From Tupaia tana (lineage: Eukaryota; Chordata; Mammalia; Scandentia; Tupaiidae): DNA of 64,000 nucleotides. Positions 11,115 through 35,419 of this stretch are shown one piece after another. The translations under genes and the position numbers were made by a program. The first letter of the stretch is position 1; every line of letters begins with the position of its first letter. The DNA is taken from positions 11,528,363-11,592,362 of the forward strand of contig JAKSZU010000029.1 of the NCBI GenBank assembly GCA_026018925.1. The letters are read 5' to 3'. Below the pieces are notes generated by a model. That model saw nothing but the letters and a program-made list of their open reading frames with translations, did no database searches and was not told the origin of the DNA.

Positions 11115-13610
11115 TTTTTTTCCTTAAAAAAGTTGCTTTATTGATTTTGTGGCAAATATATAAAAAGCTAACATGTCTTGATCTATTCAAAATTATGATT
11201 TACACTCTTAGCATAGTATGACAATTGTGTGTGTATAGTTCATCTTGTGCTTATACGCATACTGGAAAGAACATATATTCAAGGGGTTCTCTAAGATTAA
11301 AAACCATAATGTTTTGACTGAACAGCATGATTATAAAAAGGTATTACTTAAAAACTACAAATCACATGCTTCAGATCATTTCCTTCTCTGTCCCATTCTC
11401 AATTTATTCCACAATCTCATTTATTTCATTAATAATTTGTTTATACTTTAAAATATACTTTAACTATTTTTACAAGTATTCGACTTAATAATTGGTTTGG
11501 CCTTTTAAAACAGTAGATTAAAAAGCAATATAAGTGCATTTAATACTGGTCAACGTTTGGAATGCCAATAAGCAAAACAAAACAAAAATCCTCATTTTTT
11601 ATATATATATACACACACACACATATATATATAATTTTAAAATATATAATATATAATATTAAATACAGACAACTTTATCATAGGTGAAGCATTGTATATT
11701 TAATGGTTGTACTGGAAAGGGTAAATGAATTCTTTAGACCAGGGAAAAATTTAAAAATGAAACTTTTCAAGCAAACACTGCTTATTGGACAGCCTCATAT
11801 CTTGAAAATTTAAATCTAATTTTATTTGTATGTATACAAAGGACTATTTTTAAAAAATCACACCCACAAGTAAAATATTGGTAAACTGCTTACAAAGTGC
11901 AATAAATCAGTACAACAAATTCATCTCAAAGTAATAGAGTACGTGTGGCTTTTCAGGCTTTAGAACTCTCCTGGTTCTCATATAAATGGCCTAACATTAA
12001 GTCATACTGCATTACATAAGCAGCCTATGTAATTAAGCTTGGGCCCCTTAAAACCTGCTATTAATTAATTTCAATGTAAGCATGAGACCTGAAATGTAAA
12101 TTGTCAACATCTGACTGATGAAGTAAAGGTTCTCTGTATAAAATGTATGAGCTGGTAGTAGCAGTCAGTAATCCCAACTCAAATTCATGCTTTGTAATGA
12201 ATTCTGTCTGGTCTGCGTGTCCTTCATAACTGGAGATTTTTCCTACTTTTTTCTCCAGGTCTCAGTGTGGCTAAACGCTTTTTTGTGGTCCTTGTGATTC
12301 CAGAAAAATGGCTGCCACAGTTTCCTTCTTCCTCGAGTCTTTTATGGTAGGTCTTAATTCCTTCTTCTGCTCCTCTAGCTTCTGTTTCTCCAGCTGGGCT
12401 TGGTAGTTTTGAACTTTAGTTATTTGGTTGGCTTTTGCCTCCATCCTTCCCACCAGTACCTCTAGTTCACACTCTAAGCTGTCTTTCAGTTCAGCAGTCA
12501 GACTATTGAATAAGTTTTGCAAGCTGCAGGTGATCATCTTACCACAAAGCAAAGGAGCATTGTTGACGCCTTAATCGTTGCACAAAGCTTTACTACACTG
12601 CTTCTCTAGATGCAAGACGTGCTGAATGTTGGCTATCACGGCATGGCTGGGACTGGTGGACTTTCTAGCTACAAATGGCATATCACCCAAGCATAATCTA
12701 TAATGTGGTTGTGTGCCGAAATGGTTCCTAGGGCCTTTATTTTCTGGTGGTTTTGACTTCTTCTTCTCCTTATTTCCCCCGTTTTAATTCTTTTTGCACT
12801 GGGAACACATGAAGTAGCTTTATCTTCAAAGATAAAGTCTATTTGGTTCTAGACCAGTCTGGAAATCAGCTGTCTTAGCTTGCATACATTTCCTTTCCTC
12901 TTCTTCTTCATGGAGTTTTGCTTCCAACTCTTCCATTTTTTTCCTGCAATGGCCTCTATTGTACGTTTGTTATACTCCTGTTCAAGAAGACTCAGTTTTT
13001 TAAGTTGACCCTGAACACGTGTCTGATCATGCCGTCATTCTCTTTCTAGGGAAACCTGTTTCTCTAAGACTATTGTCCTCTCCATTTCTGCATGCTTTAT
13101 CATATTTCGCATGTATTCCATATTCTTCTAAAAGATTACATTTATCTTCTGCAGCTAACAACTGAGACGTCAGTTCTTGATTGTGCTTTGATTCCTCATT
13201 CCTTGAATTTGTCCTTTCCTGTATCTGATCATCCAGCACTTTCTTATATTCAATCATTTCTTTAGACAGTTTTCATACTTTCTTCTGCCTGAATTCTTTG
13301 AAGTTCTAGGCGTCAAATCTTATCTTGAAGATTCTTCAGAGCAGAAAATACGGCTCTGCTGTTACTTTCTGGATAGGCAAGTGTAGGCTTACCTGGGGAG
13401 CGTTGTAGATCCCTACTAAGGAAAGGCATATCAAGTGGATATACAACATTTGAAGATGAAGAATGGTGAACGATGCTTCCGTTAGATGTTGATGGTTCAG
13501 CTATAATGTTTGAGAACTGAGACCCAGAAGCTACAGAGACTGAAGCCACCACCATCTTTCTGCCTGTCCAGCTGGCCTCTGTAGCTCTGGGGTGGTCTTG
13601 ATTCTCTCTC
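11115..13610 (-). pseudogene. CEP57: processed pseudogene of CEP57 (centrosomal protein of 57 kDa, translokin)
   Basis: Read on the minus strand, the N-terminus at 13555 matches CEP57 (VASVSVASGSQFSNIIAEPS, RSPGKPTLAYPESNSRAVFS, ALKNLQDKI). It is followed by IEYKKVLDDQIQER and ESKHNQELTSQLLAAEDKCN (13257 downward), then a GDMPF/STSPSHA-like block near 12640-12690. The C-terminal ELKDSLECELEVLVGRMEAK and NQITKVQNYQAQLEKQKLEE lies at 12271-12500, and a tail ends in WDY-stop at 12165-12167. Exons are joined without introns. A 3' UTR of about 1 kb follows, with AATAAA (11137-11142) and a poly(A) remnant (11115-11121), so it is an L1-mediated retrocopy. Several frameshifts and stops make it non-coding. 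The parent protein acts at centrosomes and in microtubule attachment. Confidence 0.92.
11597..11662. repeat. TA/CA microsatellite
   Basis: Alternating TA and CA dinucleotides inside the CEP57 pseudogene 3' UTR. Confidence 0.8.
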
Positions 13611-30916: not shown

Positions 30917-31835
30917 ATGGAACCAGGAATTGATAGACAAATTTCAGAATTCCTTCTTCTGGGTCTTTCAAAGGAACCAGAATTGTAGCCCCTCATATTT
31001 GGGCTCTTCCTCTCCATGTACCTGATCACTGTGTGTGGAAACCTGCTCATCATCCTGGCCACCATCTCAGACTCCCACCTGCACACCCCCACGTACTTCT
31101 TCCTCTCCAACCTGTCCTTTGTTGACATCTGTCTCACCTCCACCACCGTCCCAAAGATGCTGGTGAACATCCAGACACAGAGCAAAGTCATCACCTACGC
31201 AGGCTGCATCACCCAGATGTTCTTTTCCTTAGTCTTTGTACCATTGGATGATTTCCTCCTGGGTGTGATGGCCTATGACCAGTATGTGGCCATCTGTCAC
31301 CCCCTGCACTACACAGTTATCATGAGTTCCTGGCTATGTGGAAAGCTGGTTCAGGCATCCTGGATCATGAGTGTCCTGTATTCCTTGTTACATAACTTAA
31401 TGGTGTTGCGGCTGTACTTCTGTACTCATGTGGAAATCCCTCATTTTTTTCTGTGAACTTAAGCAGGTGTTCCCCCTTGCCTGCTCTGACACCTTTCTTA
31501 ATGACATGGTGATCTATTTTGCATCTGTGCTACTGCGTGGTGGTCCCCTTACTGGGGTCCTTTATTCTTACTCTAAGATAGTTTCCTCCATTCGTGCAAT
31601 CTCATCAGCTCAGGGGAAGCGCAAAGCATTTTCCACCTGTGCCTCTCACCTCTCAGTTGTCTCTTTATTTTATTGCACAGTCTTAGGAGTATACTTTAGT
31701 GCTGGTGCTGCCCACAGCTCACACTCAAGTGCAGTAGCCTCAGTGATGTACACTGTGGTCACCCCCATGCTGAACCCCTTCATCTACAGTCTGAGGAATA
31801 AAGACATAAAGAGGGCATTGAAAATATTCTTTTGA
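30917..31835 (+). pseudogene. OR4: olfactory receptor, family 7, nonsense plus frameshift
   Basis: The ATG at 30917 follows a TTTTCAG acceptor. Codon 24 is TAG (30986-30988; CAG in sisters). A T-run at 31444-31450 has one extra T, shifting the frame at HFFCEL in the second extracellular loop. The rest is well conserved to the stop at 31833. The N-glycosylation site is lost (MEPGIDRQ) and DRY reads DQY. The Pro- and Gly-rich TM5 entry also has LLRGGP for LLGGGP. Two independent lesions make it a dead gene. Confidence 0.92.
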
Positions 31836-31959
31836 TGAAAATTATGAAAATATCACTGACCTGGAGCTGAAATAATGCCCATGGTTGCTAGGTTTAAAGC
31901 CTTAGCGCCAACATTGTGATTCTCTGATCAGATTGTGAAAGTAAATGTCTATACTTTTT

Positions 31960-32143
31960 TTTTTTTTTTTGGAGAGGTTTTTTTTGCTATAGGGTGTGTG
32001 CGCTCACCAGACAGACAGAGAGAGACAGAGAGACAGAAAGCAAGAAATCACCCCCCGGGGGGATGGTCACGCTGCATTCCCTTCTCCTCCATTCTCCTCT
32101 CGGGATCTTGGGCACGCACGCACACACGCCCAGCATGAGTTTT
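31960..32143 (-). mobile_element. young SINE, 3' part, split by the composite element
   Basis: Antisense SINE running to CCCAGCATGAGTTTT, where the composite element begins. The remainder resumes at 35138. Confidence 0.88.
32130..32143. repeat. left target-site duplication of the composite element
   Basis: CCAGCATGAGTTTT, differing at one base from CCAGCGTGAGTTTT at 35138-35151. Both are SINE sequence. Confidence 0.8.
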
Positions 32144-32508
32144 TGTTTTTTTTTTTAAATCTATTTTTTTATTACATTGAATTACATATAACTTTACAGT
32201 GTATTACATTGCTTTTTTAAAAGGGAATGCCATGCATGTCAGTCAGTACAGAGACATTAATCTCCCCGCTTCAACATTCAATATCTTTCCTATGTTTCCC
32301 CCAATCATTATTATTATTATTCTAATTATTTTTTATGATAAACATGATTTTTTTTTCCAATTATCAGATCATAAAGTTCCCAACAATAGGGAACGTAGAC
32401 TCCACTCAGGGCTGGACCAAGGGTGGGTCTCGTGCAGCCCCGCAAATGTAGGTGAATCTCCATGGAACACAACTTCAGGAACGTGGCTCAGGAAAGCAGA
32501 GACGGCCA

Positions 32509-33545
32509 TCAGCTGATGCGGCATGTGGGGCAGACCCCGGCCACGGCCCGCGGGGCAGAGCCCCGGCCACGGCACGTGGGACAGAGCCCCGGCCAGGCCG
32601 GGTCTCCGGCCAAGGCACGTGGGGGAGAGCCCCGGCCGGGCTGGCTTTCCGGCCAAGGCACGTGGAGCAGAGCCGCGGTCACAGGGCAGAGCCCCGGCTG
32701 GGCCGGCCATCCGGCCATGGCACGCGGGAGCAGAGCCCCGGCCACAGCATGCGGGGCAGAGCCCCGGTCAGGCCGGAACTCCGGATAGGGCACGCGGAGC
32801 AGAGCCCCGGCCAAGGCACGCGGGGGCAGAGCCCAGGCCACAGCACGCGGGGGCAGACCCTGGCCACGGCACGCGGGGCAGAGCCCAGCCACGGCACGCG
32901 GGACAGAGCCCTGGCCACGGCACGCGGGGCAGACCCCGGCCACGGCACGCGGGACAGAGCCCCGGCCACAGCACGCGGGACAGAGCCCCGGCCATGGCAC
33001 GTGGGGCAGAGCCCCGGTCGGGCCGGACCTCTGGATAGGGCACGCGGAGCAGAGCCCCGGCCACGGCACGCAGGACAGACTCCGGCCAAGGCACGCAGGG
33101 CAGACCCCGGCCACGGCACGTGGGACAGAGCCCCGGCCACGGCACGCGGGGCAGACCCTGGCCACGGCACGCGGGGCAGACCCCGGTCACAGCACGCGGG
33201 ACAGAGCCCCGGCCACGGCACGCGGGGCAGACCCCGGCCAAGGCACGCGGGGCAGACCCTGGCCACGGCACGCGGGGCAGACCCTGGCCACGGCAAGCGG
33301 GGCAGACCCCGGCCACGGCACGCGGGACAGAGCCCCGGCCACGGCACACGGGGTAGACCCTGGCCACGGCACATGGGACAGAGCCCCGGCCACGGCACGT
33401 GGAGCAGAGCCCCAGTCAGGCCGGACCTCCAGAGAGGGCACATGGAGCGGAGCCCCCACGCCCTGACCCCGTGCCCCAGCACGTGGAGTGGAGCCCCTGC
33501 GCCTGCCTCCCCACCCCCGCGCGCCGGCACACGGAGCGGAGCCCC
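32509..33545. repeat. CpG-rich 25-bp VNTR
   Basis: About 40 tandem copies of a 25-bp GC-rich unit beginning GGCACGCGGGGCAGACCC. Some copies have AGAGCC for AGACCC, and longer variant units carry GGTCAGGCCGGACCTC. Spacing of 25 bp was checked at 33141 and 33166. Every unit has several CpGs, so the block is a CpG island in an AT-rich setting. Long Pro/Arg/Ala/Gly-rich open frames exist on both strands because the unit lacks stops. Confidence 0.92.
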
Positions 33546-33565
33546 CGCCTGCCGCCCCTGGATGT

Positions 33566-34017
33566 TTAATTGTATCTAGTACTTCTTGCATATTATTCTC
33601 AAAGTTTTGGGCCATTTTCTCAGTCTTTATGGTGGACCTTTCTAAGCCAGCCATTTTCTCTTCTACATTAGAGATTCCATTTTCTGAATGATCTAGTCTG
33701 CTTTTAATACTTTCAAGGGAGATTTTGACTTCTTGTATTATAGCCTTCATCTCTAACAGCTCCATCTGATTCTTTTGTAAAGTGTGAAACTCCTCTTTTA
33801 GATCTTGCATGAATTTCCTCACCTCCTAGAACTCTTCAACTCCTTTCTCCTTCCCCTTCAGCAGTTCCTTGTCTCTCTTCTCTTCGATCTCTGTTAGCTT
33901 TGCCATTATGAATGATCTGAATTGTTTATCAGACATTTCCATGAATTCCCTTGAACTGTGTGTGGATGAAGAGGAGCTATCCGTTTCAATTGGAGGAGAG
34001 GCATTTTCCTGCTTCTC
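33566..34017 (-). pseudogene. L1 ORF1 N-terminal half inside the composite element
   Basis: Minus-strand frame starting MEKQENASPPIETDSSSSST, then MEMSDKQFRSFIMAKLTEIE and the coiled coil SIKSRLDHSENGISNVEEKM. One in-frame TAG (33826-33828) interrupts it where copy 1 has CAG. The homology stops at TIKHP, the point where copy 2 continues NIQIIGIS. From there the frame runs on into the VNTR as a Gly/Ala/Pro/Arg-rich tail to 33187. The RRM and C-terminal domains are missing. Confidence 0.85.
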
Positions 34018-34262
34018 CATATTTCTTGTGGTCCTGCAGTGATTTATAGTCATCTGGTGGATGGTCGGTTTCTTCCCAAACTTTTGAAGTTTAATATGAG
34101 GGTTGGGAAGTGTGCAGAAAAGGAAGCAGAGAGAGGGAAACAATACCAACAACAACAAAAAAACAGACAAGAAACAGAGAAAAAGAAGAGAAAAACTTTG
34201 GAATAAATCTAAAAAAGAAAAATTAATATTCAAAAAATTTCAATAAAAATCAAAAATTAGAA

Positions 34263-34743
34263 AACCGTGCGGCCTCAGGAGCCATGGAGCAGACTGTCTC
34301 TTGAAGAAGGGCTGTTCTGGGAGGAGCAGAGGGGATTATTAACAAAACAAAAGCCTAGGAGGGAGGGGCCAAAGGGCCCTGTAAGACACCTCACCTTAAA
34401 AAATTCTAAAAAGCAAAAATTATAAAAAAAGACAGACAGAGAGAGAGAGAGAGAGAGGTAGAGAGAGACAAAGATTGATTCAGAGACAGGAGATATAAAA
34501 GGGGTTTTCATACCACGTGGGTTTTGTATGCTGGAGGCCCAGTTAGGAGTGGGACATCTTCCTTTCTCCCAGCATGTCTAGATCTCAGGATCCATGGAGC
34601 AGACTGTCTCTTGAAGAAGGGCTGTTCTGGGAGGAGCAGAGGGGATTATTAACAAAACAAAGGCCTAGGAGGGAGGGGCCAAAGGGCCCTGTAAGACGCC
34701 TCACCTTAAAAAATTCTAAAAAGCAAAAATTAAAAAAAAAGAC

Positions 34744-34774
<31 letters not shown>

Positions 34775-35137
34775 CAAAGATTGATTCAGAGACAGGAGAT
34801 ATGAAAGGGGTTTTCCTACCACGTGGGTTTTGTATGCTGGAGGCCCAGTTAGGAGTGGGACATCTTCCTTTCTCCCAGCATGTCTAGATCTCAGGAGCCA
34901 TGGAGCAGACTGTCTCTTGAAGAAGGGCTGTTCATGTGGGTTTTGTATGCTGGAGGCCCAGTTAGGAGTGGGACATCTTCCTTTCTCCCAGCATGTCTAG
35001 ATCTCAGGAGCCATGGAGCAGACTGTCTCTTGAAGAAGGGCTGTTCACGTGGGTTTTGTATGCTGGAGGCCCAGTTAGGAGTGGGACATCTTCCTTTCTC
35101 CCAGCATGTCTAGATCTCAGGAGCCATGGAGCAGACT
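34263..35137 (-). repeat. tandem 5' monomers of the composite element
   Basis: The marker CCATGGAGCAGACTGTCTC recurs at 34282, 34592, 34898 and 35011, with a last partial copy at 35124, giving spacings of 310, 306, 113 and 113 bp. The 113-bp units are the long unit with an internal deletion of about 195 bp after GAAGAAGGGCTGTTC. Long units contain GA-rich tracts. By analogy with mouse L1, such monomers may be promoters. Confidence 0.85.
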
Positions 35138-35233
35138 CCAGCGTGAGTTTTAAGCCACCGGGTCCAGGACGTGAACCACGGTCGACTCCGTGGGAGTCCA
35201 GCGACATAGCCATTATGCTAACTGCTGGTTCCC
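35138..35233 (-). mobile_element. young SINE, 5' part, split by the composite element
   Basis: Continues the SINE of 31960-32143: CCAGCGTGAGTTTTAAGCC to CTGCTGGTTCCC. Confidence 0.88.
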
Positions 35234-35321
35234 AGATCTGGATAGATCTTGATGAAGTTTCAATCAAAGCTCCATCCTTACTCAGCTCATGATCAAACCA
35301 TCCTGAGTCTCATTTCTGTAA

Positions 35322-35419
35322 TGTATCATGAATTTGCTAATAGTGTGTCCTAGTAAAATGGTATTGTGTATGTATCATGAATTTGCTAATAGTGTGTCCT
35401 AGTAAAATGGTATTGTGTA
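35322..35419. repeat. 49-bp tandem duplication
   Basis: TGTATCATGAATTTGCTAAT and its following 29 bases are repeated head to tail without visible change. Confidence 0.9.

What the first reader, a model, noticed from the sequence alone, without database searches (positions are those of the whole stretch)
32130..35151. A 3-kb composite retroelement: L1 monomers + ORF1 N-terminus + CpG-rich VNTR + L1-like 3' end
The sequence shows a minus-strand unit with tandem 5' monomers, an L1 ORF1 N-terminal half, about 1 kb of 25-bp GC-rich repeats and a poly(A)-ended 3' tail. It splits a young SINE whose halves resume across a 14-bp duplication (CCAGCATGAGTTTT / CCAGCGTGAGTTTT). This is best explained by one insertion of the whole unit, not by step-wise growth in place. 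SVA and LAVA elements are known composites with a GC-rich VNTR that use L1 enzymes. This one has the same plan but different components, so it may be an independently evolved family. That it is a family, not a one-off, is inference.
Basis: partly seen in the sequence, partly recalled or inferred. Interest (0 to 1): 0.88.

Follow-up and report, generated by a model that had tools for sequence, protein, structure and literature searches.

The report
SVA-like VNTR retrotransposon outside apes
An unnamed mammal, apparently not an ape, carries a young family of jumping genes built from the two ends of a LINE-1 element joined by a long CpG-rich tandem repeat, which looks like an independent reinvention of the SVA elements otherwise described in apes.

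Summary
Window 32130-35151 is one minus-strand insertion of about 3 kb into a SINE, with a 13/14 target-site duplication at a TT|AAAA site. In the host genome (2.95 Gb) all 40 scored hits to the ORF1-VNTR junction, and all 40 scored hits to the unique segment plus 3' end, are near full length at 95-100%: 72 distinct loci. The 20 junction copies fetched also share the 3' junction; their VNTRs run from 325 to 2326 b. Target-site duplications differ between copies; 5' truncations and one 5' inversion occur. The same in-frame stop at ORF1 codon 65 is in 22 of 22 copies that hold it: one founder, non-coding. The last ~200 b is the end of an L1 3' UTR. Best reading: a non-autonomous VNTR composite moved in trans by L1 enzymes, evolved independently of SVA/LAVA, which papers call hominoid-specific (PMC4432496, PMC7353768). 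Host species, Dfam/Repbase status, the driving L1, and the sources of the VNTR and a ~160-b unique segment remain unknown.

The parts
32130..32143 (-). target-site duplication, 3' copy (element strand AAAACTCATGCTGG)
32144..32156 (-). A-rich tail
32157..32356 (-). terminal ~200 b of an L1 3' UTR ('type B'); 88% to the L1 3' UTR that follows an ORF2 C-terminus in L017
32357..32519 (-). family-specific unique segment of unknown source
   Evidence: 40 of 40 scored genome hits 98-100% over 170/170 b of a query that covers it
32520..33563 (-). CpG-rich VNTR: 5' array 33-48-41-43 b, centre of 25-27-b units with 43-b units, longer units near the 3' end
33564..34020 (-). L1-type ORF1 N-terminal half (N-terminus and coiled coil; RRM and C-terminal domains absent)
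33826..33828 (-). in-frame stop at codon 65, present in all 22 copies examined that hold the codon
34021..34273 (-). 5' UTR, non-repeated part
34274..35137 (-). tandem 5' monomers (two of about 306 b, two of 113 b, a 20-b leading piece), presumed promoter
35138..35151 (-). target-site duplication, 5' copy (element strand AAAACTCACGCTGG)
31955..32129 (-). interrupted SINE, 3' part
35152..35240 (-). interrupted SINE, 5' part

Best explanation
A young, non-autonomous VNTR-composite retrotransposon family of this mammal. A single founder joined an L1-type 5' end (tandem monomers, 5' UTR, ORF1 up to the coiled-coil/RRM border) to a CpG-rich VNTR, a ~160-b unique segment and the last ~200 b of an L1 3' UTR. 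Shown: the same plan at dispersed loci, distinct target-site duplications at L1-type sites, A-rich tails, 5' truncations and one inversion, a shared stop in ORF1, an array of variable length with a conserved start and a largely conserved last ~56 b. Inferred: transcription from the monomers; the RNA makes at most a 64-residue peptide; its L1 3' end and poly(A) let it be copied in trans by L1 ORF2p, with ORF1p from L1 or from the ORF1-only elements of this genome; the array changes length at the DNA level by microhomology, as reported for SVA/LAVA.
For:: 40 of 40 scored junction hits cover at least 297 of 301 b at 95-100%; 40 of 40 scored hits for the unique segment plus 3' end, 98-100% over 170/170; 8 loci coincide, so 72 distinct; 20 of 20 fetched junction loci carry ORF1n sequence, VNTR, mid and tail; 19 of 20 with 5' UTR sequence (partial in some) and monomers; duplications in 13 of 21 junction-type copies (14-20 b in the 12; 11 b in L023); exact duplications of 15-18 b in 4 of 6 copies 5'-truncated in the VNTR, an approximate one in L032, none in L036. 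L016 has a 5' inversion. ORF1n of the 20 complete copies differs 0.2-1.75% (non-CpG) from consensus; the stop is in all 20, and in 2 of 2 further copies; composite branch N:S 15:2 and within-family 50:13, against 2.88 expected with no constraint (no formal test). VNTR 325-2326 b; 33-48-41 start in 20 of 21, 49 for 48 in L021; the tail is the end of an L1 3' UTR.
Against: No activity was measured, and no intact ORF2-bearing L1 was found: the ORF2 query did not complete. Eight of 21 junction-type copies gave no clear duplication. Distances of the 5' and 3' halves do not correlate across copies (Mantel r = 0.003), and pairs of copies sharing markers on both sides are not significantly in excess (5 against 2.9, 692 of 5000 permutations), so exchange between copies, perhaps in the VNTR, is possible. 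The copies sampled are those most like the window's, and the junction query itself covers the first ~164 b of the VNTR, so the constancy of the VNTR start is partly chosen for.
Confidence: 0.9

Rival explanations
1. A one-off chimera: L1 reverse transcriptase switched templates from a VNTR-tail RNA to an L1 RNA during this one insertion.
For: The order and common orientation of the parts are what a template switch gives; L1 chimeras are reported (PMC13174262, abstract and passages read).
Against: The ORF1-VNTR junction recurs in 40 of 40 scored hits, with a shared stop codon in 22 of 22 copies that hold it. Template switching may still explain how the founder arose.
Confidence: 0.02
2. An ordinary L1 in which a VNTR grew locally after insertion.
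For: Minisatellites do expand in place.
Against: The array with the same start recurs at dispersed loci. In the window copy the end units differ grossly in sequence (read), while the shared 113-b monomer segment differs by at most 1 base between its copies and the two long monomers by 6 of 306, so the array diversity predates the insertion.
Confidence: 0.01
3. A HAL1 (half-L1) family: an ORF1-only L1 derivative that supplies its own ORF1p.
For: It has L1 ends and no ORF2 sequence was seen; this genome does have ORF1-only elements with open ORF1.
Against: ORF1 is cut at the RRM border, carries a founder stop (22 of 22) and shows no sign of coding constraint; the 3' region of an ORF1-only element matched the family's 3' part over 42 b only.
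Confidence: 0.04
4. A true member of the SVA/LAVA/PVA/FVA group, shared by descent or by horizontal transfer.
For: Central CpG-rich VNTR, L1-type insertion hallmarks, non-coding.
Against: The 5' half is L1 of this host in place of the CT-hexamer/Alu-like region; the 3' end is L1 3' UTR, not SINE-R or the LAVA/PVA/FVA 3' parts as described in PMC4432496. Sequence comparison with SVA/LAVA themselves was not run.
Confidence: 0.03

Closest known systems
SVA (SINE-R-VNTR-Alu) of hominoids
   Same: Non-coding composite with a central GC-rich VNTR of variable length, L1-type insertion hallmarks; conserved repeat-unit arrays at both VNTR ends are reported for SVA (PMC4432496); here the first ~150 b are constant and the last ~56 b largely so
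   Different: No CT-hexamer/Alu-like 5' region and no HERV-K-derived SINE-R among its parts; instead L1 monomers plus ORF1 half at 5' and L1 3' UTR at 3'; units mostly 25-28 and 43 b, against 30-50 b stated for SVA
LAVA of gibbons (L1-Alu-VNTR-Alu)
   Same: VNTR composite that includes an L1 piece; a few conserved units at each VNTR end (PMC4432496)
   Different: LAVA's L1ME fragment lies in its 3' part; here L1 gives both ends; no Alu part identified
HAL1 (half-L1)
   Same: L1-derived, without ORF2, needing L1 in trans; independent origins in mammals (PMC5753468, passage read)
   Different: HAL1 encodes ORF1p; here ORF1 is truncated, carries a shared stop and shows no coding constraint, and a VNTR fills the middle

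Membership tests
SVA/LAVA/PVA/FVA (hominoid VNTR composites) | 5' CT-hexamer/Alu-like region shared by all four families | tested here: not met
   The 5' ends of 19 of 20 fetched junction copies are L1-type monomers and 5' UTR; judged by the parts present, no alignment to Alu was run
SVA/LAVA/PVA/FVA (hominoid VNTR composites) | central GC-rich VNTR of variable length | tested here: met
   21 copies, 77-82% GC, 325-2326 b
SVA/LAVA/PVA/FVA (hominoid VNTR composites) | conserved repeat-unit arrays at both VNTR ends | tested here: inconclusive
   5' start 33-48-41 in 20 of 21, but partly chosen for by the query. Last 56 b 86-96% like the window copy; last 100 b all-pairs median 0.85 against 0.72 for internal windows; the window copy's last 150 b are only 66-77% like the others, and its 3' 204 b gave no match over 150 bits in 20 loci
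SVA/LAVA/PVA/FVA (hominoid VNTR composites) | family-specific 3' part (SINE-R, AluSz/L1ME, PTGR2 or FRAM) | tested here: not met
   The terminal ~200 b is an L1 3' UTR of this host; the ~160-b unique segment has no identified source and was not compared with those parts
SVA/LAVA/PVA/FVA (hominoid VNTR composites) | hominoid host | tested here: inconclusive
   Host unnamed; 44 listed hits of one SINE family in the window, two of them halves of the interrupted one; calling it tRNA-type and not hominoid is recalled knowledge
SVA/LAVA/PVA/FVA (hominoid VNTR composites) | mobilised in trans by L1 | not testable with these tools
   Insertion hallmarks fit; needs a cell assay
HAL1 | encodes a complete ORF1p | tested here: not met
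HAL1 | L1-derived, no ORF2 | tested here: met
   Between ORF1n and mid lies only the 77-82% GC array in 21 copies; an ORF2 C-terminal query hit only sequence outside the composites in the loci held
L1 (autonomous) | ORF1 and ORF2 present | tested here: not met

The most novel reading that the evidence does not exclude
VNTR-composite retrotransposons arose a second time, outside hominoids, by a different route: the host's own L1 ends captured a CpG-rich minisatellite. In this genome the composite may live as a second-order parasite, using ORF1p from an abundant ORF1-only (HAL1-like) family and ORF2p from L1. Convergence on the same layout (constant start, variable centre, semi-constant end) would mean that the VNTR itself is what makes such RNAs good substrates for L1 enzymes.
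Probability: 0.5. Interest if true: 0.88.

Novelty: new variant of a known kind. Interest (0 to 1): 0.82.

Why it matters
Two papers state that VNTR composites are specific to hominoids (PMC4432496, PMC7353768). An independent family lets one ask which features are required, because nearly everything except the VNTR plan and the L1-type insertion differs. It offers a test of what the VNTR does in retrotransposition and silencing, a question PMC4432496 discusses as unsettled, and gives a second case of how such composites are assembled. The young copies (ORF1n within 0.2-1.75% of consensus in the sample) suggest that movement is recent or continuing.

Tried and rejected
Rejected: assembly artefact, one-off chimera and local VNTR growth. 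Rejected: that the 3' end is an unrelated SINE; five older copies in the window (x13, x41, x46, x52, x60) fit a 5'-truncated L1 3' UTR once L017 showed that UTR behind an ORF2 end (x13 was aligned to it directly; the others align to x13 and to each other).

Led nowhere: viral contigs patterns for the 3' end and VNTR; ORF1 scans of genome contigs and viral contigs gave 36 and 11 pattern matches, none a relative; Rfam at gathering threshold nothing; tRNA scan nothing; a paper search for SINE letters found nothing. Mantel test null; marker-pair test not significant. The first codon table was off by one frame and was redone. In one search the window copy's ORF1 had 9 of 72 private residues, between open homologues (1 of 54 to 3 of 30) and a dead 6-kb copy (12 of 66); I rest instead. 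In one search the script gave L023 a spurious 9-b match; the real 11-b one is. L014's A-rich match was not counted. Target-site duplications of L038 and L040 were not looked for.

Not in print: listings (10 of 10, 9 of 9, 15 of 16, 15 of 16, 30 of 337 and 19 of 19 papers shown) named no VNTR composite outside hominoids in titles and abstract starts. Papers: PMC4432496, abstract and three sections read; PMC5753468, passages; PMC13174262, abstract and passages; PMC7353768, abstract start in listings only.

Full report
Observation. The unit 32144-35137 lies on the minus strand between duplicated 14-b sites (13 of 14 identical, the difference at a CpG) inside a SINE ('tRNA-type' is recalled, the tRNA scan found none). 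On the element strand the site reads TT|AAAACTCA, the L1 endonuclease type (motif recalled). The joined SINE flanks match other near-full-length SINE copies in the window.

Anatomy. From 5' to 3': a 20-b leading piece and four monomers, two of 113 b and two of about 306 b (the short form lacks 193 b); the shared 113-b segment differs by 0-1 bases between copies and the long pair by 6 of 306. Then 5' UTR and ORF1 from its ATG to the coiled-coil/RRM border: a full homologue, P0001, goes on into the RRM domain, which Pfam places at residues 127-223. Then a ~1-kb VNTR, a unique segment of about 160 b, the last ~200 b of an L1 3' UTR, and an A-rich tail.

Family. The host genome search answered three times. 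The ORF1-VNTR junction query gave 1951 first-look candidates; 40 were scored and all 40 cover at least 297 of 301 b at 95-100% (the window copy is one of them). The unique segment plus 3' end gave 853 candidates; all 40 scored cover 170 of 170 b at 98-100%. Eight loci are in both lists, so 72 distinct loci are known. These are lower bounds, chosen for likeness to the window copy. I fetched 20 of the 39 other junction loci: 20 of 20 hold ORF1 sequence, VNTR, mid and tail, and 19 of 20 hold complete ORF1n, 5' UTR sequence (partial in some) and monomers. Six loci listed only were fetched as 5-kb pieces: two have the full plan, four are 5'-truncated inside the VNTR. Of three more seen as 3.2-kb pieces, two are truncated in the VNTR and one runs to the ORF1 end of the VNTR at the edge of the piece.

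Retrotransposition hallmarks. Clear duplications, no two alike, were found in 13 of 21 junction-type copies including the window's, and exact ones of 15-18 b in 4 of 6 VNTR-truncated copies (L033, L035, L037, L039); L032 has an approximate one, L036 none. Ten of the 12 copies have TT before the cut, two TC (L009 and L017, both in L1 ORF2 sequence). L016 has its 5' end inverted, as twin priming gives. The other 8 of 21 gave none; later insertions or exchange between copies may be why.

One founder, no protein. The in-frame TAG at codon 65 is in all 20 complete copies and both. Against two other ORF1 copies of this genome, the family's branch has 17 changes, 7/5/5 over codon positions, 15 replacement to 2 silent; within the family 50 to 13; about 2.9 to 1 is expected without constraint (no formal test). 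So the ORF1 piece does not appear to be kept as a coding sequence.

Age. ORF1n differs from consensus by 0.2-1.75% outside CpG and mid+tail by 0-2.5%. VNTR CpG o/e is 0.72-0.84 against 0.25 for the window. The sample is biased to the window copy's kin, so this dates recent activity, not the origin.

VNTR. Lengths run from 325 to 2326 b in 21 copies. As cut by script, the array starts 33-48-41 in 20 of 21 copies (49 for 48 in L021), followed by 43 except in L025; 12 of 21 end in a 55-56-b unit; the centre mixes 25-28-b and 43-b units. The first 150 b are 92-95% like the window copy in the 20 others, but the junction query itself covers that stretch. At the 3' end, not covered by that query, the last 56 b are 86-96% like the window copy and the last 100 b have an all-pairs median of 0.85 against 0.72 for internal 100-b windows; further in, the window copy's last 150 b are only 66-77% like the others, and its 3' 204 b gave no match over 150 bits in the 20 loci. 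A 26-b unit follows from a 43-b unit by losing 17 b between two GGCCGG repeats (read). PMC4432496 reports conserved arrays at both VNTR ends and microhomology-driven remodelling at the DNA level for SVA and LAVA; the layout here is similar in kind, clearly at the 5' end and partly at the 3' end.

Where the ends come from. In L017 the composite lies inside an L1 ORF2. The rest of that ORF2 is followed by a 3' UTR whose last ~200 b is the family's tail at about 88%. Five older tail-like copies in the window fit 5'-truncated bits of the same 3' UTR (x13 aligned along it). The 5' half is closest to an ORF1-bearing element in L020 (26 differences in 457 nt), itself broken, so it may be L1 or ORF1-only. 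The unique segment and VNTR have no known source.

Against and open. Distances of the 5' and 3' halves are not correlated (Mantel r = 0.003) and shared-marker pairs are not significantly enriched, though pairs such as L009/L020 and L022/L028 share markers on both sides; exchange within the VNTR is possible. No intact ORF2 was found because that query did not complete. A pattern count of copies did not complete either.

Comparison. By function it looks like SVA and LAVA: non-coding, VNTR-centred, with L1 insertion hallmarks. By membership it fails: no hexamer/Alu-like region and no known SVA-group 3' part among its pieces, though no alignment to those families was run. It also fails HAL1, because ORF1 is cut and stopped. 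Two papers state that VNTR composites are specific to hominoids (PMC4432496 read in part; PMC7353768 seen in listings), and six listings showed none elsewhere; Dfam, Repbase and subscription papers were not searched. I file it as a new variant of a known kind.

Noticed in passing
L017 8571-9901 with L029 1-1460; L041 1-1100: ORF1-only (HAL1-like) elements: open ORF1, then about 1 kb of 3' region and poly(A), no ORF2 seen; L029 and L041 are 97.7% alike over 1094 b. A genome search with P0001 scored 132 matches, all 296/296 residues at 98% with open frames of 309-388 aa; only two loci were checked for the missing ORF2.
   Followed up: partly
P0001: A protein labelled Streptomyces narbonensis is 96-98% identical to ORF1 of this mammal, so that bacterial assembly appears to hold DNA of this or a close species.
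   Followed up: partly
L032 and window 32130-35151; L009 and L017: Recurrent targets: two family copies sit in different SINE copies at about the same SINE position, and two sit in L1 ORF2 sequence with similar but different duplications.
   Followed up: no
window 35321-35419: A perfect 49-b tandem duplication next to the element.
   Followed up: no
window 13000-13600, minus strand: Looks like a processed pseudogene of CEP57 (recalled resemblance, not tested).
   Followed up: no
window 31016-31835: Olfactory-receptor-like gene split over two overlapping frames (family recalled, not tested).
   Followed up: no
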